Source of the DNA: a virus
Virus record (IMG/VR): IMGVR_UViG_3300032118_001412
Coordinates: 1-21,172 of that record
DNA: 21,172 nt
Strand: one strand, 5' to 3'
The position numbers were made by a program, and so were the translations under genes. The notes under the pieces are model-generated. The model was not told the origin of the DNA. It ran no database searches and saw only the letters and a list, made by a program, of their open reading frames with translations. Shown here in pieces: positions 9,401 through 21,172 of this stretch (positions within the stretch are counted from its first letter, which is position 1; each line of letters opens with the position of its first letter).

Positions 9401-9726
9401 AGAATCTACTCAGAGGCCATCAGTATCGTAACAAGACGCCGTTCGCTTTGAAGTCTGAAGCAGAAACGGCGGGTGAGTGGTTGATCGATAAAGGTGAGGC
9501 CGCGAAACTCGGTATTGTCACACGTCTTATGGCTTCAGGTATGACGAGTTCCTCAGATGTATATAGCCTAGTAACTGTGGGCGCTCTGATCCATAAACAT
9601 TTGAAAGCACGTGCCGATTCTGAAGCGTTCGATAAGACCGGAAAAGTGTCTGAAGTAGCTGAGGTAATCCCCCTTAGGCCTTCGTATAACATTGACGAAG
9701 GAGACCCTTTACAAGGAATTGATTGA
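6358..9726 (+). CDS. Primase-ATPase/helicase: CHC2 zinc finger, TOPRIM, P-loop ATPase
   Basis: A 1122-residue multidomain replication protein. I start it at ATG 6358, 44 bases inside the nuclease gene; a TTG at 6382 with better-spaced AGGAAAA is an alternative. The N-terminal CHC2 zinc finger is C53-P-Y-H56...C74-F-S-C77, as in DnaG primases. A TOPRIM catalytic domain follows: VEGEHDAL with the metal-binding Glu277, and GDDDAAGD with Asp327-329. A ~380-residue middle region without a motif I recognise leads to a P-loop ATPase: FESGKTTL (Walker A, Lys722), SALDEMND (Walker B, Asp769/Glu770) and a sensor-like ITASGTPI. The protein would synthesise RNA primers and probably unwind DNA ahead of the polymerase encoded next. 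The ATPase is not the RecA-type of T7 gp4; its helicase activity is inferred. Confidence 0.88.
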   Translation: MSKQEKSILKVAKLDQAELRKLWKQPTAAWVSLLNTLGAQKVKEAGENIKLQCPYHPDTNPSGVLSPLKGHYRCFSCGTYTSDPIRFVNQYLRSTYIEVARTFRDHFKLEKLDIKKLDEAELEQHRLKMLNEVFHRYLCNVWLADKVPQNAANTVIWLKQRGITSVEMLGSLGMLPTSTDLQKLCAQLGGNEEDITWCMRLVGDYLNITYMNCVTYTYAISPDEVSAFKLRIPGPSKDSVRFVRPRDGGELGAFGVLTSSFYKHYASEKVTRFIAVEGEHDALALTQGMLTECAEVDEVVIALGGNGHNGVDFMADLGFTECRLIGDDDAAGDSYPVSVLSKTRRVAIQIFKWPQRIRSPVPGKIDPDEAVKIHSFPVVFREVCEPKNYVFATRWCIERAKTRIKGIHQDNILGLQEVGTEFSAVLRNDAERQVFAEEFSKMCPAVPATELLRKTQLQDDTALGFVEKITDWIRTHYQVTTWDCEHAILKLWNKKRKQYLYVQVDHKAAVTQFKRYTQKGSLYYWARDEIGLPSYFPSVDDPEAAQTALDKAEDMIEKDVQRAYSMLSSEAVDDAGGFIKGQGIHLENVDKGKPGYIVNGNRVYRLKWQPDLSCLASATELEGPTDKGMVFDLEHRRNLIEDMSQGWTSQIKCAADITQRPPYTAQQTFTLVHKLINVGFGFRNQEVDSLYCAGLVFYNHLYDVITGRRMLTHYQAQFESGKTTLLSVTANHTQLREFSLCDHALALDSFTQAGFYQIFTNTRLISALDEMNDPDDGSIESRNKKTFYQRCRTLATSGKATLSQGTVEGQSRAYHIHNNVITASGTPIVDAMDESRFNTINLKKNPNHNNVRLELRNAFSLDEIEKLRLSVLLHSINLAPRVKQRYSDLYNQFGRRQAGDGTLNIQNIDRFTENLMPMAAILDAFGVDGKKFIEDYRDTRKQQVYERNRSTAGHNIIDTVLNAPIPSKDEANQFTNIKSMLLDQNQRDKISPSKVGVYYDERSQCIGIMWSEVKQNLLRGHQYRNKTPFALKSEAETAGEWLIDKGEAAKLGIVTRLMASGMTSSSDVYSLVTVGALIHKHLKARADSEAFDKTGKVSEVAEVIPLRPSYNIDEGDPLQGID

Positions 9727-12700
9727 TGTTTACAGAAGCAGAGTACAAAGGACAAATGTGTGACGGCTGTCCCCGGTACCCTAGTAAACGCTGTGGTAGC
9801 TCAAAAATAGACGTTGACGTAGACGTTCTTTTTATTGCGGAGCAGCCGGACGGACCCTCAGTATCCTCCGGCAAACCCATGTCGGGCCATGGTGGTAGAA
9901 TTTTAGCGACGGCGCTTAAAGCGGTAATGGGCGCAGACAAACGCTATGCGGATATGCGGTACGCGTATACGTACGCTGTTCAATGTATTTCTGAGACTGA
10001 AGACGAAACAGCCGCGCCTACTAGGCTGGTCGTACATCAATGTCGTCCTTATTTACAGGGGACCATACAGAAGCTTAAACCTAAAGTCATTGTTGCAATG
10101 GGTTCAACCGCGTTGCGTCAATTGGGCGTCAAGCAACAATATAATGATATACGCAATAAGTTCACAATACAGCTGGGGTACGACGCACCGATTTACACAA
10201 CCTTCAGCGAAAAAGCATTGCTTGCAGCTCCGGGCGTGTTTGAGACGTTTAAGCTAAACCTTATTAACATATTCGATAAGGTCATTAATAATGGCATTGT
10301 TGCGCCTCCTTTGGAAGAAATATCCAAAGACTACCTCTTACCTAAAACGATGGACGACGCGCTTGCGGCTTGCGACGTGATCCTCAATTATGGCGATGCT
10401 ACAACACCGGCAACGCATTGGCCCATCTCGGTAGATACTGAAACGACTACGCTTTATCCTGAGAAGGACAGCGCCAAGATTATTGCGTTTTGTTTTGGTT
10501 GGGACGCAGGAAAAGCAGCGACTATTCTGTACGACCACCCCCACGCAGGGGCGGAGTATTTAGCGCGTCTACCCGAACTCGATGTGAAGATACGCGAGAT
10601 ATTGGCTAGTACCAAGCCTAAGATATTTCACAACGCGAAGTTTGACTTGAAGTTTATTGAACGCAAGTACGGCATGCAAGTGAATGCAGTGGCCTGGGAT
10701 ACGCTGTTGGGTGAACATTTGTTAGATGAGGACAAGAAAGGCAATTACGGCCTGAAGGTACTCACAGCTAATTTCCTGCCGCAGTACTGCGGGTACGAAG
10801 ATAAACTGTACGATCTATTAAACAACGAAGAAAGCGCTTCTAAAGTCGATGAAGCAGAAAAAGAACTAGAAGATCTACGTGAGATTATTGCTACAGAACA
10901 CCCAGGCTATCTCAGAGCATTAGAAGAGTATAAGGAAGCACTAGTTGTCTACGAAAAGGACCTCAAGCTATTTGAGGCTAACGATAGAATATATCACATC
11001 GCTTATGACGACTATTTGTTCTGTAAATATGCTCTAGCGGGTAAACAGGCAGCCTGGGATGTTGAGGTAGCGGACTGGCCTAAGGGTAAGCGCGGTAAGC
11101 CCAAAAAGCCCGTGAAGTGGTTTTCTAAGCCTGCAAAACCTAGTGCGGTAAAAGAGCCCAAAAAGCCCGATGATCCGCGTTCAAAAAAAGAACAGCAAAT
11201 TAGTCAAGATGCCGGTTTTGAAAACCTTCCCATACATGACTTACAAGTTTATGGTGCGGTCGACGGTGATGTAACTCGACAACTAGCGCGGCTGCAACGT
11301 CGTCGCATTGCGAAGGAACAGTCTAAAGTTGTCCCTTTAATGAAGACGCACGCCATTCCTGCTTCGCGCGTTTTAGGCCGTATGGAATTCGGAGGCATGC
11401 GTGTTGACACGCCTTACATTGATGTTCTCGAAGAAGCGCTCACTGTTGTTATAGAGAAGACAGAGCGAGAGCTCTATGAAATGGCTGGTCGTACCCAACC
11501 TGGTGGTATAAAGGAACTCAATTTAAATGGCGCTGCTACGCTAGCCAACGTTTTGTACAATTGGGGTTGGACGCACCCCAACGGTAATAAAATGGGCGCG
11601 TATGACATACTTGCGTACACCAAAAAGGGACAGGCTAGTACTTCAGAGAAGATCCTACGACAGTTCGTTGCATACGAAGATGACAAAAAACAATGTCCGA
11701 CCGAAACGGCTTACTTTGTTGAACGGCTGATCAAGTACCGCAAGGCTAGTAAAGCCCGTAATACTTTCCTGGCCAATATTAGAGCGCTGTCCAAGCGTGA
11801 CGGGTTTCTGCATACGCAGTTCCATTTGAACGGCACGGGAACCGGCAGGCTAAGTTCCAGTGATATGAATATGCAGAACCTGCCCAAGTTCTTGGCAGGT
11901 TGGAACCTCAAGAAACTGTTTATTCCCGACGATGACAGCATGGTCTTCGCCAACATGGATTACAAGGGCGCAGAGGTTCGTGTTTTCTGTGCCTACGCCC
12001 GAGATCCCGCACTTATCCAAGCCCTCAATGATGGCATGGATATGCATAGTTTCTTTGCAGCTAAAGTATTTAAGCGTCCCTACGATATGTACGCGCGCAG
12101 GGACGACACTGCCTTTATTCCTGACGGCGCTCTACGTAAACTCTTAGACTTAGAACGCAGCAATATTAAACGTGTGGTATTCGGTATTCTTTACGGGGCA
12201 GGTCCTGAGAAAATATCAGAGACCATCGGCGTTAGCGTAGACGAAGCTAAGGTCCTAATTGCACTTCTGTATCTAATGTTTCCCGAGATTGCGCGCTATG
12301 CTACCAATGTGGAGTACGAAGTTGAACGAAACCATTTCGTCGATACTTTCTTCGGTCGCCGTCGTCGTTTCCCGTTAGCCGGTATCTCCAGACACGCTGG
12401 ACGTGCAAAGCGTCAGGGCCGTAATTTCAAGATACAATCAACGAGTTCGGATATTGTGATCGGGCAGCTCGTTGAAATGGAAGAGCCTCTACGCTGTGAT
12501 TTAGGCGGGCGTATGCTACTAACTGTGCACGATTCTATTGCATTCCAATTACCGAAGAAGCATATTGGCCAGCTCCACGACTTTGTAGAACATTATGCTA
12601 AGAAGCGCGTTGCCGATAAGTACGCATGGATGGCAGTACCTTTCGAAGCAGATACTGAAATTGGAGAGAATTACGGTGAATGCCAGTCTATTTCAAAGTA

Positions 12701-12797
12701 TCTGGCAAAACACCCATTACTGTTACAACCCGAGGGAGTGATTGAAGAACATGAGCTACTCACAGAACTCAGAAACGACGCCTTCGAGGCAGCTTGA
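9726..12797 (+). CDS. DNA polymerase family A with N-terminal UDG-like Fe-S domain
   Basis: A 1023-residue replicative polymerase; ATG 9726 overlaps the primase stop, with AAGGA at 9713-9717. Residues ~1-180 resemble family-4 uracil-DNA glycosylases: C12, C15, C87 and C106 form the 4Fe-4S set, with VLFIAEQPDG and KPKVIVAMGSTALRQLG. The glycosylase motif-2 His-Pro is replaced by Ser161-Glu162, so glycosylase activity is doubtful. The DEDDy proofreading domain has D237/E239 (VDTETT), N303/D307 (FHNAKFDL) and Y509/D513 (YGAVD), with an enlarged segment between the last two. Polymerase motifs: TGTGRLSSSDMNMQNLP, motif A with Asp745 (NMDYKGAEVRV), motif B R811...K815...Y823 (RSNIKRVVFGILYG), motif C H935-D936-S937. 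HDS instead of HDE is common in phage PolA. A UDG-like/PolA fusion is also reported for SPO1-type phages. Confidence 0.95.
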   Translation: MFTEAEYKGQMCDGCPRYPSKRCGSSKIDVDVDVLFIAEQPDGPSVSSGKPMSGHGGRILATALKAVMGADKRYADMRYAYTYAVQCISETEDETAAPTRLVVHQCRPYLQGTIQKLKPKVIVAMGSTALRQLGVKQQYNDIRNKFTIQLGYDAPIYTTFSEKALLAAPGVFETFKLNLINIFDKVINNGIVAPPLEEISKDYLLPKTMDDALAACDVILNYGDATTPATHWPISVDTETTTLYPEKDSAKIIAFCFGWDAGKAATILYDHPHAGAEYLARLPELDVKIREILASTKPKIFHNAKFDLKFIERKYGMQVNAVAWDTLLGEHLLDEDKKGNYGLKVLTANFLPQYCGYEDKLYDLLNNEESASKVDEAEKELEDLREIIATEHPGYLRALEEYKEALVVYEKDLKLFEANDRIYHIAYDDYLFCKYALAGKQAAWDVEVADWPKGKRGKPKKPVKWFSKPAKPSAVKEPKKPDDPRSKKEQQISQDAGFENLPIHDLQVYGAVDGDVTRQLARLQRRRIAKEQSKVVPLMKTHAIPASRVLGRMEFGGMRVDTPYIDVLEEALTVVIEKTERELYEMAGRTQPGGIKELNLNGAATLANVLYNWGWTHPNGNKMGAYDILAYTKKGQASTSEKILRQFVAYEDDKKQCPTETAYFVERLIKYRKASKARNTFLANIRALSKRDGFLHTQFHLNGTGTGRLSSSDMNMQNLPKFLAGWNLKKLFIPDDDSMVFANMDYKGAEVRVFCAYARDPALIQALNDGMDMHSFFAAKVFKRPYDMYARRDDTAFIPDGALRKLLDLERSNIKRVVFGILYGAGPEKISETIGVSVDEAKVLIALLYLMFPEIARYATNVEYEVERNHFVDTFFGRRRRFPLAGISRHAGRAKRQGRNFKIQSTSSDIVIGQLVEMEEPLRCDLGGRMLLTVHDSIAFQLPKKHIGQLHDFVEHYAKKRVADKYAWMAVPFEADTEIGENYGECQSISKYLAKHPLLLQPEGVIEEHELLTELRNDAFEAA
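11099..11169 (+). repeat. In-frame 14-base direct repeat in the polymerase linker
   Basis: GCCCAAAAAGCCCG occurs at 11099-11112 and again at 11156-11169, 57 bases apart and thus in frame. Both copies encode PKKP within the Lys/Pro-rich linker of the exonuclease-domain insertion. This suggests the linker grew by a local duplication. Confidence 0.7.
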
Positions 12798-13339: not shown

Positions 13340-13458
13340 GAGTAACAATCCCCATTTATCAACTTCATGCCCAATCCTTGTCGTTACACGGTCCTGCAAA
13401 TAATTGCGCCGTGTGATGTTTGGTGCTGAGGTCTGATTTATGGCGAGGGTTGTTACTC
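13340..13458 (+). ncRNA. 119-nt imperfect hairpin between convergent genes (structured RNA or terminator)
   Basis: Nearly the whole gap between the convergent genes folds on itself. From the base up: GAGTAACAA-T-CCC (13340-13352) pairs with GGGTTGTTACTC (13447-13458), one bulge; CATTTATC (13353-13360) with GATTTATG (13435-13442), two central U-U mismatches; ACTTC (13362-13366) with GAGGT (13428-13432); A, GC and CCAA (13367, 13369-13374) with T, GC and TTGG; CGTTACACGG (13382-13391) with CCGTGTGATG (13409-13418); GCAA with TTGC at the tip. That is about 44 pairs. Three G-U pairs (64/430, 83/417, 85/415 in the last digits) would be A-C mismatches on the other strand, so the + strand RNA folds better. 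The right arm is followed by TCTTTTA, so termination is one plausible role. No protein-coding frame explains it. Confidence 0.6.
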
Positions 13459-13462
13459 TCTT

Positions 13463-15142
13463 TTAGCCGCTGTTGTATGTAAACATCGGGTCCAGGGTCA
13501 TCATTTTAGCGGCCATCCAACCAAATATCTGTGCATGCAAACAGTCGTCAGGTTGAGACGGCGCATGCCGCCATACTTTACGACCTTGCTGCGTTACCTC
13601 CTCGTATTCGTTTAGTAGGTCCCGTATAGGCACCTGCATTAAACGAACATTGGGAAATATTACACCACGACGTTTTACGAACATGAAGTAGTTATCTATC
13701 ATGGTCGTGCGTTCTGCTAAGAATCTATCTATTTTATTCCAATAAAAAGGGCGTGAGTTACCACCTCCGCCTGCGCTTGAAACACCTCTATACTGCACTT
13801 GCATGGCTTTGTGCGGACCCAGACGTTCCCGTAAGTTGGAGTTAGCAAGAGCCCCTTCACCGGCATCTCCAAATATGATCTGGACACTGTAACGACTGCA
13901 CATGTCTACTATATGGTCAATTACTCCTCCGGATATCGGATTGGTTTCCGGGTATATCTTAAAGTACAAAGTCTTTAATTTAAATGAATGCTCTGCAGTC
14001 GCACTGCTGATGCCCCATATCCAAAGTACTGAGCGGGAATTACCTGTGGTGCCGCCACCCGACCAATCGACTCCAGCTACTACTGCACGCGTGTCTGTTA
14101 GCAATAAGTTGCTGGCAGGCATCTCGGGTATGTCGTAGTCCTGACAAAGGCTTTCCAATTCTTCCTTGGAAAGTAGGCGAGTACCTATGGCATCGGATAC
14201 GCCCATTACTTCGTTCTTGAACTTCGCGACTGGATATACTGAATGTTTTTCTAAAATACGGCGCCAACGACTATGTGCTACCTCCTGATTCTTAAAATCA
14301 GTAGGCATAGAAATAGGCACGTTCTTTGGTAGAATTACCTGGGGTACATGAAAACCCTTGATACGTTTCCCGTCAAACTCTTTAGGATACGTATGCAGGT
14401 CTATCCATTCGCCATTACGGACGTCCAAGTATTTACCGCATTTAAGACATATGGGGCCTAGTTTACCTAAGCATTTATCGTCTTCAAAGTATTGATACGT
14501 TTTACATCCGGTACATTTTACAATCCACTCTGTTTGACTGCTCCACTGCCATAGTTGTTCAATGGTGTTTTCCATTGACTTTGGCGTTCCGCAGTACGTT
14601 TCATACGCGAAATCAGAATTCGCCATACATTCGTTAATAACAGGAATGACTTCATCGTATAAAATATCCTGTACTTCGTCATAGGCTACGCGATCAGCTG
14701 ACACACCGCGGGCACGGTCCGGATCATCGCTAGCATACGAGAAGGCTAACTCTGAGCCGTTAGTAAACATTTTCTGGAATACGCGGCTAGACAGTTCTTT
14801 AGATACCCAGCGTTTGCGTATGTCTGGAGAGTAAAATATAGTCTTACCTACACGAGTCTGAGAGAATTTAGTAGTCTGCTCTTGACTCGGTGCGATGAAG
14901 AAACTTTTCCAGTGCGGCGTACTACACGCTTCCATAATCAAAAAATTAGCTAGAGTCGTACTCTTAGCTACCTGCCGCGCTGTCTTAAGTAGCATCGCGG
15001 GATAGATATTGTCATACACATGTCTATAAAACGGAAAATGCTCTAAAGAAAATGGATGGCCGTCTAGATGCAGCAGGGTAGTCACCCACTCCGAACGTCG
15101 GATGGCTAAATTCTGTGCAGGCGCTGTCTGTTTTAATTTCAT
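13463..15142 (-). CDS. terL: Terminase large subunit
   Basis: A 559-residue DNA-packaging motor that translocates DNA into the prohead using ATP and cuts it to length. The ATPase domain has the Walker A variant RQVAKST (56-62), Walker B VAYDEVQDI (Asp155/Glu156) and a YCGTPKS coupling-motif-like segment (~183-189). A zinc finger follows (C210, C213, C232, C235), as seen in lambda gpA-like terminases. The RNase H-fold nuclease has VAGVDWSGGG (Asp359), IIFGDAGEG and PDDCLHA (Asp532/533). Start ATG 15142 has no Shine-Dalgarno; a TATTAT lies 12 bases upstream, suggesting a very short leader. It diverges from the MoxR gene across 25 bases. No small terminase subunit is visible. Confidence 0.93.
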   Translation of the reverse strand: MKLKQTAPAQNLAIRRSEWVTTLLHLDGHPFSLEHFPFYRHVYDNIYPAMLLKTARQVAKSTTLANFLIMEACSTPHWKSFFIAPSQEQTTKFSQTRVGKTIFYSPDIRKRWVSKELSSRVFQKMFTNGSELAFSYASDDPDRARGVSADRVAYDEVQDILYDEVIPVINECMANSDFAYETYCGTPKSMENTIEQLWQWSSQTEWIVKCTGCKTYQYFEDDKCLGKLGPICLKCGKYLDVRNGEWIDLHTYPKEFDGKRIKGFHVPQVILPKNVPISMPTDFKNQEVAHSRWRRILEKHSVYPVAKFKNEVMGVSDAIGTRLLSKEELESLCQDYDIPEMPASNLLLTDTRAVVAGVDWSGGGTTGNSRSVLWIWGISSATAEHSFKLKTLYFKIYPETNPISGGVIDHIVDMCSRYSVQIIFGDAGEGALANSNLRERLGPHKAMQVQYRGVSSAGGGGNSRPFYWNKIDRFLAERTTMIDNYFMFVKRRGVIFPNVRLMQVPIRDLLNEYEEVTQQGRKVWRHAPSQPDDCLHAQIFGWMAAKMMTLDPMFTYNSG

Positions 15143-15167: not shown

Positions 15168-16454
15168 ATGGCGGATAAAAAGGATGCAGTATCCACATGG
15201 GAGAAACTTGGAGTTGGCCCGACGAGTATCGGCATGGTACCGCGCCTACTCGACTTACTTTGGGCTATGGAGCCCAAACTTACAGTGTGCCTAGTTGGTG
15301 AAACGGGAATTGGAAAAACCCCGATTGTACACCAATGGTGCAATGATAAGAAAGGATTTATGTACGTACTGAACTTTGGCCATATGACACAAGAAGAAGT
15401 GTCGATGATCATGTTCAGTGAAAAGGGGGACTCTTTCGGATTCGTTCCTCCCGAATGGTTGTTGGAGTTGAACCAGCATGCCATTTCTGATGGCTGCGCC
15501 GTACTCTTCCTCGACGAATGGAATCGCGGTGACAAAGCCATGGTTAATGCTTTGTTTACGCTAACGGATGAGCGCCGCGTACATAACTTCAAATTACATC
15601 CGAATGTATTGGTTGTCGCGGCCATGAATCCTAGTGATGGGAGCTACTTGGTCAACGAAGCGGAAAAAGATCACGCGATACGGAAGCGTTTAAACTTCGT
15701 GTACTGTACACATGATCTCCATGCCTTCATAGTGTATACTAAAGAAGCAAATTGGCACCGCCTAGTTCCTGCCTTTCTAAAGGCAGCTTCAACATATCTG
15801 TACGATGCGGGTGCTCGCGATGCGGGCAAAGCTTTTCCTTGTCCTGCCAATTGGGAGAAAGTATCCAATATACTGTACGCGGCGGAACGCATCCGTATTG
15901 ATATTGCCGATTCGGCCGTACGTACACTTGTTGTGGGACAAATTGGGAGCATTGCGGCGGACAAGTTTATGGACTTTGTAGCCGACCAGAATACACTTAT
16001 TCAACCCGTTGAGATACTGAATGAATATCTCAACAGGTCAAGTGTTCGTAACCGTGTAGCAGCGGTCCTAAACTTCCGAATCGATAAGGACACTAACGCC
16101 TTCATCGAAAAGGAAAGCAAAGCTAAAAACCGCGCCAGTGTCATTAGCGAGCTCAATAAGGGCGTGGCTGTAGAACTATTTAGTTCTATGCCTGATCCCC
16201 TCAAAATCGCCCCGCAACTAGCCCTGTACATGGGGGATATACCCAATGAACTGCTGTCGCCTTTCGTAGGGCAACACATTGCCGAACAAAGTAAAATCAA
16301 AGGCCAAGAAGGAGACAAGTATTTGACCAAGCTCTCGGCAGCACTGGCTAAGCAAAAGCCGTATCAGGCTAAAATGAAATTTATCCTTGATACAATGCGC
16401 GAGTACAAGAGGAGCGCAAATCTAATTACGGACCCAGATCCTATGAACCCTTAG
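15168..16454 (+). CDS. MoxR-type AAA+ ATPase
   Basis: A 428-residue AAA+ ATPase of the MoxR/CbbQ kind. Walker A is GETGIGKT (44-51, Lys50), Walker B is VLFLDEWNR (Asp116/Glu117), sensor 1 is VVAAMNPS (Asn154), and AIRKRLNF carries the likely arginine fingers (Arg172, Arg174). The FGHMTQEEVSMIMFSEKG segment matches the MoxR/CbbQ insertion after Walker A. The C-terminal ~200 residues form the helical lid and an unassigned extension. MoxR ATPases work with a VWA-domain protein to remodel or activate target complexes, and just such a protein is encoded at 18151-19869, separated by two opposite-strand genes. AGGGG at 15160-15164 is the ribosome-binding site. The target is unknown. Its end overlaps the convergent next gene by 14 bases. 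Confidence 0.92.
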   Translation: MADKKDAVSTWEKLGVGPTSIGMVPRLLDLLWAMEPKLTVCLVGETGIGKTPIVHQWCNDKKGFMYVLNFGHMTQEEVSMIMFSEKGDSFGFVPPEWLLELNQHAISDGCAVLFLDEWNRGDKAMVNALFTLTDERRVHNFKLHPNVLVVAAMNPSDGSYLVNEAEKDHAIRKRLNFVYCTHDLHAFIVYTKEANWHRLVPAFLKAASTYLYDAGARDAGKAFPCPANWEKVSNILYAAERIRIDIADSAVRTLVVGQIGSIAADKFMDFVADQNTLIQPVEILNEYLNRSSVRNRVAAVLNFRIDKDTNAFIEKESKAKNRASVISELNKGVAVELFSSMPDPLKIAPQLALYMGDIPNELLSPFVGQHIAEQSKIKGQEGDKYLTKLSAALAKQKPYQAKMKFILDTMREYKRSANLITDPDPMNP

Positions 16455-17133
16455 GGCCTGCCTTAAACGGTATTAATTGCTTTTCACGTGCGTTAAGACG
16501 GGTGTCGAAATACACCTGTACGGCAGCTAATCGCGCAAGTTGTACACCCGCGGGAGTCTCTGGGTACGCCGCATCCGATAGGGCTTGCCCTCTTGGCGCG
16601 ACAGCCCAGGCTTCCCGTACCGTATTTGCTAGCTTAGCCGCTTCTTTAGGTAGGCGCCTCGTGAGTTCATCCTGCGCCATTTCAAGCATAGGCGGCGCAA
16701 TTACGAAGCCTTCTCTATACAACTGAATTGCCGTGTAACCGATAGGCTCCCGGTCAAACTCAATGGTAGATTGCAGAAAATCGTGGTGTATTAAATTAGC
16801 TTCGAATACGGCCCAATTAATAAACGCGATAGGCGCGTCTTCAAGGCCAAAGTAGGTAGGCGTTTCATTACTGAACGCAATACTAGCCACCTCAAAAGCA
16901 GTAGCGTCGTACCAAAAACGCCCAGTCGTAAGCAACGACCGGCCAGCCATTATTTGTTGTCTATTACCTACAGGTACTCTAGCACCTAAATGTTCTAGCT
17001 CTAACCATATCGTTTCAGGTTCCCAATTAAGCCAGACATTAGAAAAAAGATGGAACACTGCATGCATACATGCGCTCGTACCCGTATCCGGGTCACGCAG
17101 AGCAGTTAATGCTACGGCCTTAAGTTCAGGCAT
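16441..17133 (-). CDS. Hypothetical late protein, 230 residues
   Basis: Not recognised. A soluble, mixed helix/strand protein with an aromatic-rich N-terminal half (MHAVFHLFSNVWLNWEPETIW, split by strands) and a helical, alanine-rich C-terminal half. No membrane segment, signal peptide or catalytic motif is seen. Its ATG at 17133 overlaps the stop of the upstream - strand gene by eight bases, so the two are co-transcribed and coupled. Its 3' end overlaps the MoxR gene tail to tail by 14 bases. Lying on the same strand as terL suggests late or structural timing, which is inference from position. Codon usage does not look foreign. Confidence 0.85.
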   Translation of the reverse strand: MPELKAVALTALRDPDTGTSACMHAVFHLFSNVWLNWEPETIWLELEHLGARVPVGNRQQIMAGRSLLTTGRFWYDATAFEVASIAFSNETPTYFGLEDAPIAFINWAVFEANLIHHDFLQSTIEFDREPIGYTAIQLYREGFVIAPPMLEMAQDELTRRLPKEAAKLANTVREAWAVAPRGQALSDAAYPETPAGVQLARLAAVQVYFDTRLNAREKQLIPFKAGPKGS

Positions 17134-18124
17134 TCGCTAAATGTTCGCGCAAAGTCATTTTTACATCAAGGGGTAACGTTGAAAATAGTTGTTGAAATTG
17201 TGTAGGATCCCCGCTCTGTGCGACAGCACCAAGTTCGCTTGCGTCCACCTGGTCCCATACCTGCTCCGGAAGATGCATGAGTTCAGAGATAGGAACGGTC
17301 AGCCCCGCTACGTCACAAGTCATCTCTGCGATCTTTTCAGTGTTGAAAACAGTAAGCAGCGGGTCTAATAATTTTTTGCCGTAATGTTTATCAAGCCCCG
17401 CATGCTTATCAATCTGTGCGATAGTAGTCGCTAATTTTACGAGTTTTTCGCGGTCATTGACGAGCCCCGCCATATTTTTTGTAGCTTCGGCTAATTGGGC
17501 GTACGCTGTTTTTTGTACGAGCGTAGGGGCTGATTCAGTACGCGCGTCTAACCAATCCCGCAGTACACGGGTATCGGACGCCGTAACGCCTGCGAACTTA
17601 AGAGATTCGGGCATTAACGTAACGTTACACCGTTTGGCAGCCATGTATAGGCGGCTGTACGCATCTGCGCGCTTTTCAAGCGTTAAGTACTTACCATCGC
17701 GGTGTAACACTTCTTCGGCCATTTTTACTTGATCCGCCCCGACCAAAGGCAGTCGTTTTTCGTCGGGCAACGCGTACTCAGTAGGTTCTGCCGAAGCTGT
17801 TTTCATGGCTGAAAACATTGAAATATCTAATTGGTAAATTTCCCGCGCAGTAGCTAATTTGACATCAACATGTGCCGGTACGTTAGAACCGAGCTTACTG
17901 CGGTAAAAGATACTAGCGAGTGTATCTTCGCGGGTGTGAATCGGAAAACGTCGCTCGTCTTCCCATGCGAAGACTGTATTAGGTAAATCCTCTACAGCCA
18001 GCTTAGTAGTTTCGAACTCCGCTGTTTTTAGCATTTCACGCGCTAACGGAAAATCCCGTGTAAGAACATGCAAGTGCGCGTAAACCGGGTCACCGCTGTA
18101 TTGATCGATAATCATTGAGGACAT
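17126..18124 (-). CDS. Hypothetical late/structural-type protein, 332 residues
   Basis: I cannot name a family with confidence. The segments DERRFPIHTREDTLASIFY (~55-73) and TEYALPDEKRLPLVGADQVK (~114-133), followed by an amphipathic helix with RADAYSRLYMAAKRCNV, form a paired pattern (Y/F-A-x-P...R-x-P-L/I...) that I recall from uncharacterised proteins in other large phages; that recall should be checked. The rest is helical, with no membrane segment. The ATG at 18124 is preceded by a perfect extended -10 (TGCTATAAT) placed so that transcription should begin at or next to the A of the ATG. It is first in a two-gene - strand operon. Confidence 0.85.
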   Translation of the reverse strand: MSSMIIDQYSGDPVYAHLHVLTRDFPLAREMLKTAEFETTKLAVEDLPNTVFAWEDERRFPIHTREDTLASIFYRSKLGSNVPAHVDVKLATAREIYQLDISMFSAMKTASAEPTEYALPDEKRLPLVGADQVKMAEEVLHRDGKYLTLEKRADAYSRLYMAAKRCNVTLMPESLKFAGVTASDTRVLRDWLDARTESAPTLVQKTAYAQLAEATKNMAGLVNDREKLVKLATTIAQIDKHAGLDKHYGKKLLDPLLTVFNTEKIAEMTCDVAGLTVPISELMHLPEQVWDQVDASELGAVAQSGDPTQFQQLFSTLPLDVKMTLREHLANA

Positions 18125-18150: not shown

Positions 18151-19869
18151 ATGAGAACAGGCATAGAAAAACTAGATAATAAAAACACCATGACTATGGA
18201 AGAAGCAACAAGTCGCGGACGAGATTCTGTGGCGAACGCGCTGACATATCTAACTAGCAGTAAAGTTCAGAATTTTTACGCACGAGTCATAGGGCTCATG
18301 GACAAGGTAGCAGTGCCTGGTTTTGGAACCATGGCCGTTAGCGCACACGCCGGACGTTACCTGTTTCTTTACGATCCGCTTTTTGCAGCGGTTACGTCTT
18401 ACGAAGAGGTCTGCGCAACATGTGAGCATGAAGTCCTACACCTGATCTTAGAGCACATCCCGCGTGTCCAAGTTCTTATGCGCATCTATTCGGAAGAGAC
18501 TGACAGACATCTGATGTTGCTCACGTCTAACCTTGCGACAGATGCGGCAGTAAACGAGTTGCTTGCACGTAGTTGGCCTAAAATTAAATACCCGGATAAA
18601 CCCCTGGGTTATTGGGTGATTCCAGAGAATTTTACGCCGCCGCTTCCTAAGGACATGGCTTACGAAGATTATCAGCGACTACTCATTGACCTTCTAGCCA
18701 GAAAACTCAAGTCCTCCCCCACACAGCTGTATAACCTTGCCAAGAAAATTCTTGAAAAACAGTCTAAAGCTGTTCAGGACGCGCTCAAACAACAAAGTAA
18801 GAATAATAGTCCGGACGACGAAGAGGACTCTGAAGGCACAGGACAAAAGCCCAAACAAAATCCGCAGTCGGGCCAAGGTCAAGATACACAACCCAACCAA
18901 GGCCAAAGTCAAAGCCAAGGTCAAAGCCAAAGCCAGGGCGCCGGCAGTCAAACAGAAGACGATCCACTGGGCGGCATGACCCCAGAGGAATTGCAGAATG
19001 AAATAGGGAATCTAGACCCCGTAGACCAGAAGATTCTGGAAATGCTTGTTAATGCAATGCGCCCGCATTTGGCTTGGGATCAAGGGAAAGGCGCCGATGC
19101 TGAAGGGGACACACATAAGTTAATTGAGAATGGCAAGGAGTTAATTAAGGCGACACTCTCGAACGCAGATAAATCACGTGGTACGCTACCGGGTCACATT
19201 ATGGAAATTATCCGTAAGATGCTGACCCCGCCCACCGTGCCATGGACGCAGTTTCTGCACGATATGGTGCAGCGTACACGTCAAACTAAAAAGCAACGCG
19301 GTATGAGCCGGCCGTCCAAGAAGATTTCGGCGCTCAAAGTATTTGCACGTAAGATGGAGGAAGAGGGTAATCCTCTCTTTGCGCGACTTCCGCATATTCG
19401 AAAGATGCCGGTATTTCCAGGGATTAAACACAGTAATAAATTCACTATTTATTACGTCGTGGATACGTCCGGTTCAATGTCTACCCGTGAGTTGCAATTA
19501 GGGTTATCTGAATTGCAACACATTCAAAAGGCTGATTCCGAAGTGAGTATCTGTGTGATTTACGCAGATACCCACATTTGCAAGGAATATTGGATCACAG
19601 CAACGAGCGAGATCGACACAGCACTCACTGGACGCGGTGGTACGGATTTCGAACGCGTATTTCAGCACATAAAGACAATGTGCGGGCATCAATCTAAAGC
19701 CCCAGACATTGTTATTTACTGTACTGACGGTTACGCGCCTCCCCCGCAAACCCGTATTTCTGTGCCTACGGTATGGCTATTAACGCCTGGTGGCAGTCCC
19801 GTCATGAAAGAAATGGGGCATGTGACAATAAATATGAAGGATTATCAATTGGAGGATCCGAGTGTCTAA
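18151..19869 (+). CDS. VWA-domain protein with N-terminal zincin-like (HExxH) domain
   Basis: A 572-residue protein matching the two-part layout of the DUF2201 family: an N-terminal putative metallopeptidase domain and a C-terminal von Willebrand A-like domain. HEVLH (93-97) sits in ATCEHEVLHLILEH, a zincin signature. The VWA fold has an intact metal-ion adhesion site: DTSGS (438-442), Thr498 in GRGGTDFE and Asp526 in CTDGYAP. Between them lie a helical region and a Gln/Gly/Ser-rich flexible linker (~231-264). In bacteria such proteins are encoded beside MoxR-type ATPases, so the ATPase at 15168-16454 is the likely partner. Whether it cleaves protein or only scaffolds is unknown. ATG 18151 is the preferred start; ATG 18190 is possible. 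The end overlaps the next gene by eight bases. Confidence 0.9.
   Translation: MRTGIEKLDNKNTMTMEEATSRGRDSVANALTYLTSSKVQNFYARVIGLMDKVAVPGFGTMAVSAHAGRYLFLYDPLFAAVTSYEEVCATCEHEVLHLILEHIPRVQVLMRIYSEETDRHLMLLTSNLATDAAVNELLARSWPKIKYPDKPLGYWVIPENFTPPLPKDMAYEDYQRLLIDLLARKLKSSPTQLYNLAKKILEKQSKAVQDALKQQSKNNSPDDEEDSEGTGQKPKQNPQSGQGQDTQPNQGQSQSQGQSQSQGAGSQTEDDPLGGMTPEELQNEIGNLDPVDQKILEMLVNAMRPHLAWDQGKGADAEGDTHKLIENGKELIKATLSNADKSRGTLPGHIMEIIRKMLTPPTVPWTQFLHDMVQRTRQTKKQRGMSRPSKKISALKVFARKMEEEGNPLFARLPHIRKMPVFPGIKHSNKFTIYYVVDTSGSMSTRELQLGLSELQHIQKADSEVSICVIYADTHICKEYWITATSEIDTALTGRGGTDFERVFQHIKTMCGHQSKAPDIVIYCTDGYAPPPQTRISVPTVWLLTPGGSPVMKEMGHVTINMKDYQLEDPSV
18871..18938 (+). repeat. Low-complexity repeats coding a Gln-rich linker
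   Basis: Imperfect copies of GGCCAAGGTCAA and CAAAGCCAAGGT-like units fill 18871-18882 and 18901-18938. They encode GQGQ and SQSQ repeats in the linker between the zincin-like and VWA domains. The pattern suggests slippage-driven length change of a flexible spacer. Confidence 0.75.
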
Positions 19870-20542
19870 CATCTTAGATATACACATCACGCGCACGGCT
19901 GCGGGTACGCTCATCCCGTTCGATAAATTATATCTAGTAAAACCCGAAGACACTGAACTTATCTCTAAAATCTTTGGGTATGGCATCGTACTTCCGTTCA
20001 CGACAGAGTTGCAGGAAACGCTCTACACACTCAAACCTGCGTCAATAACGCGTAAACACTTCCGGCGTAATGATCAGGACAAAGCAGTCCCTGCCGAGAT
20101 AAACGGTAAAGATCTCATAGAAGGCCGATTCCCACCGGCAGCTATTCGTAATTGGTGGGTTGAGTTCGGGGAAGAATTCGAGCTTAGTAAACGTCTTGTG
20201 GTTATTCCGGTATTAACAAGTATTGCTCGGCGTAAGATCCGTCCGAGATATTTAGCGAACCAAAAATGGTTCATGCCCCACACACAGCAAACCGTGAAGC
20301 GCAAACTTACGGTCGTTGGTTCAAAGGAAATCGCTCCGGCACTAAGCGATTATGCCTATCTAGCAACACCTCTGAAAGCTCCGCAGGATAAAATACGTCC
20401 TTTATGTACAATATGTCCGCGGCTTATGCGGCATGTGCAAGGAGAGTGCGTGCCAGGACAGTTGATCTGTTATGCATCTTTGAATTTCGCAGACATTGCG
20501 GGGGATGGAAACAGTGCCAGCGTACAATCAAACAACGATTAA
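19862..20542 (+). CDS. Hypothetical protein with C-terminal Cys4 knuckle, overlaps RT gene
   Basis: Not recognised; 226 residues from GTG 19862, with a strong GGAGG six bases upstream at 19851-19855. The N-terminal half is strand-rich (ILDIHITRTAAGTLIPFDKL); the middle is basic (ITRKHFRRN, RRKIRPRYLANQKW, TVKRKLTVVG), suggesting nucleic-acid contact. The C-terminus has a metal-type cluster C182, C185, C196, C203 (CX2CX10CX6C, starting CTICPRL), then a polar tail. It is coupled to the VWA gene upstream (eight-base overlap), and its last 38 bases overlap the start of the reverse transcriptase gene. It could be an RT accessory protein or belong to the VWA gene; the sequence does not decide. Confidence 0.85.
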   Translation: MSNILDIHITRTAAGTLIPFDKLYLVKPEDTELISKIFGYGIVLPFTTELQETLYTLKPASITRKHFRRNDQDKAVPAEINGKDLIEGRFPPAAIRNWWVEFGEEFELSKRLVVIPVLTSIARRKIRPRYLANQKWFMPHTQQTVKRKLTVVGSKEIAPALSDYAYLATPLKAPQDKIRPLCTICPRLMRHVQGECVPGQLICYASLNFADIAGDGNSASVQSNND

Positions 20543-21172
20543 TATTATTGATCTTCCGCATTTCGAGAAGATCCCCGATAATGTTCCGTGGGTTATTGAT
20601 ACGATGACCCTAGCACATGTTATGGGCATACGAAATCGTACGTTAATGAGTATGATTATCGGTCGGCATAAAATGTATAAAAAGTGGACTATCCCGAAGA
20701 AGTCCGGTGGGACACGCACGATTCATGCGCCAGAGCCCAAACTCAAATTTGTACAAAGCCGTCTACTAGAGCGATTTTTCACGAAGATTGCGTACCCGGA
20801 ACATATTGCGGCATACGTGCCAGAGCGCACTACCCGATACAGCGCGGAACAGCATTGCGGTAAGCAAGTTCTCATTGTGATCGATTTGAAAAACTTCTTT
20901 CCTTCGACACGGCGTGCGTGGATCCGACGTGCGTTACAGGACCTATTTCATCTGCCGTTTGAAGTGGTTAGTGCAATAGCTGACTTATCTACCATTCCAG
21001 TCGAAACTGCGGTGGGTACACGATACGTTGTTCCGCAAGGTGCTCCTACCAGTGGCGCGGTCTGTAACTGGGTGGCGCATCACAGGCTAGATATCCCGAT
21101 TTTGGAAGAATGCAAGAAATGGGACATGGCGTACACCCGCTATGCTGACGACTTAGCCTTTTCGTGCAAAGA
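20505..21172 (+). CDS. Retron-like reverse transcriptase, N-terminal part (3' end outside window)
   Basis: This frame has no stop before the window ends. From ATG 20505 it gives 222 residues. The start has GGGGG directly before it and lies inside the preceding gene; ATG 20604 is an alternative. Seen in order: TLAHVMGIRNRTL, then KWTIPKKSGGTRTIHAP (61-76), KLKFVQSRLLERFF, SAEQH (113-117), VIDLKNFFPS with catalytic Asp127, VVPQGAPTSGAVCNWV, and YTRYADDLAFS with Asp215/Asp216. These are RT blocks 1-5 with all visible catalytic aspartates. The IPKKSGGTR-x-IHAP and YTRYADDL forms, and SAxxH in place of the retron NAxxH motif, place it near retron and related 'unknown group' RTs rather than group II intron or diversity-generating RTs. 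The thumb and any VTG motif are outside. No retron RNA fits immediately upstream. Confidence 0.93.
   Translation, partial: METVPAYNQTTINIIDLPHFEKIPDNVPWVIDTMTLAHVMGIRNRTLMSMIIGRHKMYKKWTIPKKSGGTRTIHAPEPKLKFVQSRLLERFFTKIAYPEHIAAYVPERTTRYSAEQHCGKQVLIVIDLKNFFPSTRRAWIRRALQDLFHLPFEVVSAIADLSTIPVETAVGTRYVVPQGAPTSGAVCNWVAHHRLDIPILEECKKWDMAYTRYADDLAFSCK

What the first reader, a model, noticed from the sequence alone, without database searches (positions are those of the whole stretch)
20505..21172. Phage-encoded retron-like reverse transcriptase with a modified NAxxH motif and no adjacent upstream RNA locus
Seen: a frame with RT blocks 1-5, an intact first Asp and YADD, IPKKSGGTR-x-IHAP, and SAEQH where retron RTs have NAxxH. 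Known: retron RTs normally follow a non-coding msr-msd RNA directly; defence RTs of the unknown groups often have other arrangements. Here the gene starts inside the preceding coding frame, so the usual RNA position is filled by protein-coding sequence. Inference: this may be an RT type adapted by a lytic phage, perhaps for competition with other phages, with its RNA downstream or elsewhere.
Basis: partly seen in the sequence, partly recalled or inferred. Interest (0 to 1): 0.7.

Follow-up and report, generated by a model that had tools for sequence, protein, structure and literature searches.

The report
Core phage retron with distant RNAs
A lineage of large phages carries, as an inherited core gene beside its DNA-packaging genes, a retron-type reverse transcriptase whose likely RNA templates lie not next to it but elsewhere in the genome, often as tandem arrays; this would be a new arrangement of a known DNA-making system.

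Summary
In detail: window 20505-21170 is an intact but contig-truncated RT (DLxxFF, YADD, SAEQH) starting 38 nt inside the preceding frame. Full-length relatives (345 aa, 90% identical) put it in the retron clade, well ahead of group II RTs. It is not a stray defence gene: in about 41 large-phage records it sits in a fixed block, TerL / MoxR AAA / two phage genes / VWA-metallopeptidase - X - RT - Y, and it co-diverges with TerL. X and Y are Cys-rich proteins without known fold. No msr-msd fits beside the RT. Relatives instead carry retron-type RNA units (closing a1/a2 helix, G at the a1 end, roughly 7-bp hairpin with 3-nt loop, long hairpin) elsewhere, on the RT strand: arrays directly 3' of TerL, or loci 35-110 kb away. 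RT-less sister phages lack them; a sister RT (L047) has the canonical unit directly upstream. The window has only a covarying 119-nt hairpin behind TerL (13340-13458); its canonical unit probably lies outside the 21-kb contig. Best reading: a vertically inherited phage retron with trans-encoded, multi-copy templates. msDNA production and function are untested.

The parts
20505..21170 (+). retron-clade reverse transcriptase, 5' 222 codons, cut by the contig end (full-length relatives about 345-360 aa)
19862..20542 (+). gene X (226 aa), invariant C-x2-C-x10-C-x6-C near the C-terminus; overlaps the RT start by 38 nt; no known fold
18151..19869 (+). DUF2201 protein: HExxH metallopeptidase-like domain plus VWA with MIDAS
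17126..18124 (-). W332, marker gene of this phage lineage (unknown function), kept also where the RT is absent
16441..17133 (-). W230, block gene of unknown function
15168..16454 (+). MoxR-like AAA ATPase; present with VWA, absent in the bare module
13463..15142 (-). terminase large subunit
13340..13458 (+). 119-nt structured element on the RT strand, closed by GAGTAACAA/TTGTTACTC; position of the retron-like arrays in relatives; possibly a simplified unit or a terminator

Best explanation
It is the RT of a phage-encoded retron-type system whose RNA templates are supplied in trans. Shown by sequence: intact retron-clade RT; fixed position in the block MoxR / VWA-X-RT-Y next to TerL; co-divergence with the phage backbone; in relatives, retron-type RNA units on the RT strand behind TerL or 35-110 kb away, often as arrays of units with different long hairpins; none found in RT-less sisters. 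Inferred: the RT binds the 3-nt-loop hairpin, primes at the G after a1 and copies the long hairpin into several msDNAs. Further inferred, weaker (about 0.4): X, Y and MoxR-VWA form with RT-msDNA a sensing or effector complex that guards the infected cell against competitors or host defence, as cellular retrons do.
For: Retron families lead: PADLOC RT_XIII 2e-70, NCBIfam St85 1e-53, group II 6e-17; PDB: Ec67 5e-33, Ec86 1e-29, group II 4e-8. One RT in each of 20 records. Block synteny; RT distances track TerL/W332/VWA, r about 0.83, 0 of 2000 permutations. Units: 50 three-nt-loop hairpins with stem of 6 or more in 13.4 kb of RT+ TerL gaps against 3.3 in shuffles. Strict descriptor: 11 hits in 540 kb of RT+ block loci, all on the RT strand and all but one in the gap behind TerL; 0 in 403 kb of RT- loci and 0 in 333 kb of two RT- genomes. 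G003 array with covarying hairpin stems (4 of 7 pairs changed on both sides), ending in a terminator-like site; G014/G015/G017 homologous units with compensatory changes; G001/G002 units. Sister RT L047 has the canonical unit directly upstream, z -7.8. Ec86 region Y binds an 8-bp stem with a 3-nt UUU loop (PMC6868368).
Against: No cDNA, msDNA or transcript was seen. The strict descriptor was shaped on some of the units it then found; it finds units upstream of only 6 of 118 other RT loci, so its sensitivity is low, and it gives about 0-1 hits per shuffled genome. The window itself has no canonical unit; its element is one long hairpin without the 3-nt-loop hairpin. L226/L257 are RT+ without a TerL gap and their genomes were not searched. 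Several RTs of the lineage have YSDN. G003 a1 ends in ACG|G or CAC|G, not TTA|G. VTG is replaced by LLG.
Confidence: 0.72

Rival explanations
1. The structured noncoding regions are terminators, packaging sites, origins or packaging RNAs of the phage and have nothing to do with the RT; the RT has some other, unidentified template.
For: Many lie between convergent genes behind TerL; the window and G001 closing helices are followed by T runs; the G014-type gap units look different from the others.
Against: Absent in RT-less phages that keep the same TerL neighbourhood; similar units occur at unrelated loci far from TerL; a1-G-hairpin-long hairpin-a2 order and strand agree with retrons and with L047 upstream of its RT.
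Confidence: 0.17
2. A cis msr-msd is hidden inside the VWA-X-RT-Y coding region.
For: Retron RNAs are normally upstream of the RT (PMC6868368).
Against: Synonymous sites are nearly saturated and no strong block of suppression was found except at gene overlaps and one VWA stretch; overlap leaves no spacer.
Confidence: 0.04
3. The RT acts without a dedicated RNA (template-free or host-RNA synthesis, like some DRT/Abi enzymes) or is being lost.
For: YSDN active site in some members.
Against: Catalytic residues kept in 30 of 34 RTs at about 35% median identity; retron-clade sequence; arrays present.
Confidence: 0.06
4. It is a diversity-generating or group II intron RT.
For: All share RT motifs.
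Against: Scores; no direct repeat of 30 nt or more in the window; no group II RNA in the Rfam scan.
Confidence: 0.01

Closest known systems
Retrons Ec86 / Ec67 / St85 (standard retron cassette)
   Same: RT clade; in relatives RNA with a1/a2 helix, G after a1, short 3-nt-loop hairpin, long hairpin
   Different: RNA not next to the RT but in trans, often several units in an array; RT is a core gene in a phage packaging block; SAExH and LLG instead of NAxxH and VTG; partners X, Y, MoxR-VWA
Type XIII retrons (PADLOC RT_XIII)
   Same: best-scoring RT model, 2e-70
   Different: X and Y match no PADLOC model; cis RNA missing
Retron-Nex1 (Ne160) of Nannocystis
   Same: repeated msr-msd copies without an RT within a kilobase (PMC6868368)
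   Different: there read as duplicated insertions; here in a phage lineage together with one core RT
MoxR-vWA conflict systems with RT (PMC7159879)
   Same: MoxR plus vWA associated with an RT
   Different: those RTs are diversity-generating; here the RT is retron type
RT of Staphylococcus S6-like jumbo phages (PMC10638138)
   Same: RT conserved across a large-phage lineage
   Different: only about 28% identity over 185 aa; no RNA known

Membership tests
retron | RT in the retron clade | tested here: met
retron | region X NAxxH | tested here: inconclusive
   SAEQH: A and H kept, N to S; N is variable in known retron-like RTs (PMC4244168, PMC6868368)
retron | region Y VTG | tested here: inconclusive
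   relatives have LLG or similar, literal VTG absent; VTG present in only 47% of retron-like RTs (PMC4244168)
retron | msr-msd directly upstream of the RT (standard cassette) | tested here: not met
retron | ncRNA with a1/a2, priming G, recognised stem-loop and msd hairpin anywhere in the genome | tested here: inconclusive
   anatomy met in relatives; the window contig holds no canonical unit
retron | branched msDNA product | not testable with these tools
   needs experiment
diversity-generating retroelement | template/variable repeat pair near the RT | tested here: not met
   no direct repeats of 30 nt or more in the window
group II intron | group II intron RNA around the RT | tested here: not met
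   Rfam: nothing at gathering in the window and six loci; RT score far below the cut-off
DRT/UG antiviral RT | match to a DRT family over its cut-off | tested here: not met
   Drt2 7e-9, 35 bits against cut-off 390

The most novel reading that the evidence does not exclude
One phage RT serves an array of RNA units with different msd hairpins, so that a core phage function rests on a whole set of distinct msDNAs made in trans, for example as decoys or sensors.
Probability: 0.45. Interest if true: 0.9.

Novelty: new variant of a known kind. Interest (0 to 1): 0.77.

Why it matters
Retrons are known as bacterial anti-phage cassettes with one RNA beside the RT. Here an RT of that kind is an inherited core gene of large phages, kept over divergence to about 30% identity, apparently with many RNA templates in trans. 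That would separate enzyme from template, suggest that phages use msDNA for their own ends, and offer natural multi-template sets. Presence/absence sister phages make the function testable.

Tried and rejected
Upstream or embedded cis RNA: no space, no synonymous-site signal. Rfam: nothing. Intergenic comparison G001/G002/G003 at first gave mostly small coding genes; only the comparison G014/G015/G017 revealed conserved noncoding structure. Perfect-hairpin clusters (stem 9 or more): none, wrong descriptor. Folding scan of all windows timed out once, rerun coarser. Fold searches with X and Y models (pLDDT 77 and 86): no match in PDB, and for X none in BFVD; a weak Tudor/chromo-like hint in Y (Z below 3) was not used. 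Type XIII SWIM partner paper search: nothing held. Searches for phage-encoded or trans retrons in the held literature: none, subject to the library's limits.

Full report
OBSERVATION. It is truncated by the end of the 21,172-bp virus record. Its 90%-identical relative L002 continues to 345 aa. The start lies 38 nt inside gene X.

WHAT THE RT IS. PADLOC ranks RT_XIII first (2e-70) and other retron RTs next; NCBIfam ranks retron St85 (1e-53, below its curated cut-off) far ahead of group II (6e-17). Against solved structures the profile finds Ec67, Ec78 and Ec86 at 1e-33 to 1e-29, group II at 4e-8. In a tree of 104 RTs the RTs of the block form one cluster, apart from four long-branch rows whose place is unsure.

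THE BLOCK. 34 distinct relatives, 41 with later loci, share the order TerL(-), MoxR(+), W230(-), W332(-), VWA(+), X(+), RT(+), Y(+), Z328(-), with a few departures. Record lengths reach 198 kb; one RT per record in 20 of 20. RT distances follow those of TerL, W332, VWA, X, Y and Z328 (r 0.83-0.89, 0 of 2000 permutations): mainly vertical inheritance. W332 has no match in the phage records searched. Sister phages show gains or losses: a bare module without MoxR, VWA, X, RT and Y (L245-247, L252, L253, L258, L262), and one with MoxR and VWA but another protein in place of X-RT-Y (L222-225, L227-230, L240, L244, L248) or nothing (L217). Fifteen RT-less records, up to 175 kb, show no RT of this family anywhere (PF00078 rang in every RT+ record). 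The VWA protein has HExxH and MIDAS motifs. X has four invariant Cys, Y seven; neither has a recognisable fold.

WHERE IS THE RNA. In nearly all loci X overlaps or abuts the RT, and Y overlaps its end. Synonymous sites show no hidden RNA. The comparison of three 187-190-kb genomes (G014, G015, G017) showed conserved noncoding, structured DNA, including a region directly 3' of TerL with three copies of a two-hairpin motif. The space behind TerL is long in most RT+ phages and mostly short in RT- phages. In RT+ gaps 50 hairpins with 3-nt loop and stem of 6 or more were seen against 3.3 in mononucleotide shuffles (maximum 7); RT- gaps gave 2 against 0.4, in only 1.8 kb. Other intergenic DNA of six RT+ genomes has 1.06 per kb, their own TerL gaps 2.27, and all RT+ gaps 3.7 per kb.

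ANATOMY OF THE UNITS. On the RT strand: closing helix a1/a2 of 8-17 bp, G directly after a1 (often TTA|G), usually one hairpin, a further hairpin of 6-8 bp with 3-nt loop starting mostly 12-24 nt after a1, then a long hairpin, then a2. Examples: L236:13573-13781 and 14048-14142, L249:8836-8965 (UUU loop), L251:14412-14526, L231:15038-15166, L259:15532-15651. Outside the TerL gap: G001:142577-142707 and G002:101685-101810, in similar noncoding DNA; G014:167753-167883, G015:8250-8378, G017:8063-8193, homologous with compensatory changes in all three helices; G005:145.9-148.3 kb, about eight candidates; G003:93785-94545, five units head to tail and two further UAC-loop hairpins, stems covarying, ending in a terminator-like hairpin. 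In the seven RT+ genomes the convincing units lie on the strand of the RT. RT- genomes G025 and G027 gave no hit. Among other RT loci the strict descriptor finds units directly upstream in 6 of 118, including the sister viral RT L047 (z -7.8), which is the canonical arrangement and serves as positive control.

THE WINDOW. Its 152-nt gap behind TerL holds a 119-nt hairpin, the most stable RNA window of the record, z -7.9. Its closing helix shows three pairs changed on both sides in five sequences, with none of 500 shuffles reaching the observed pairing. It lacks the 3-nt-loop hairpin, so it may be a simplified unit or a terminator. By analogy with G001 the canonical unit would lie tens of kb outside the contig.

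INTERPRETATION. Most likely a retron-type RT working on trans-encoded templates (0.72). What the msDNAs do is not shown; a conflict function with X, Y and MoxR-VWA is my preferred guess (about 0.4), a role in packaging or DNA metabolism is the alternative. The published MoxR-vWA conflict systems that include RTs use diversity-generating RTs (PMC7159879), so they are a parallel, not a membership.

LIMITS. The descriptor was refined on units seen in L236, L249, L251 and L231; independent support comes from G001-G005, G014-G017, L259, L269 and L047. Gene calls in whole genomes were made by a simple hexamer script. RT- genomes scanned whole: two. Poisson figures use rates chosen after the fact and are not relied on. 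IMG/VR records may be incomplete.

Noticed in passing
L222:6213-7361 (-) and L227, L229, L240, L248: A roughly 390-aa protein without Pfam match takes the place of X-RT-Y behind VWA in RT-less phages; a relative lies near the RT in L048.
   Followed up: partly
L045, L050, L053, L057, L249, L254, L269: YSDN instead of YxDD in the RT active site.
   Followed up: partly
G001:150790, G002:92580, G003:103200: Conserved GTCGAAAATTTTTAG where one short frame stops and another continues; possible programmed frameshift.
   Followed up: no
G014:38306-40161: 1.85-kb conserved noncoding region with internal repeats, not explained.
   Followed up: no
window 9723-12797: Uracil-DNA-glycosylase-like domain fused to a family A DNA polymerase.
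   Followed up: no
L074:4154-6900: VWA-like gene directly upstream of an RT in another virus.
   Followed up: no
L232/L234/L238 TerL gap: Two adjacent hairpins with complementary loops (CTAC/GTAG), a possible kissing pair, repeated three times.
   Followed up: partly
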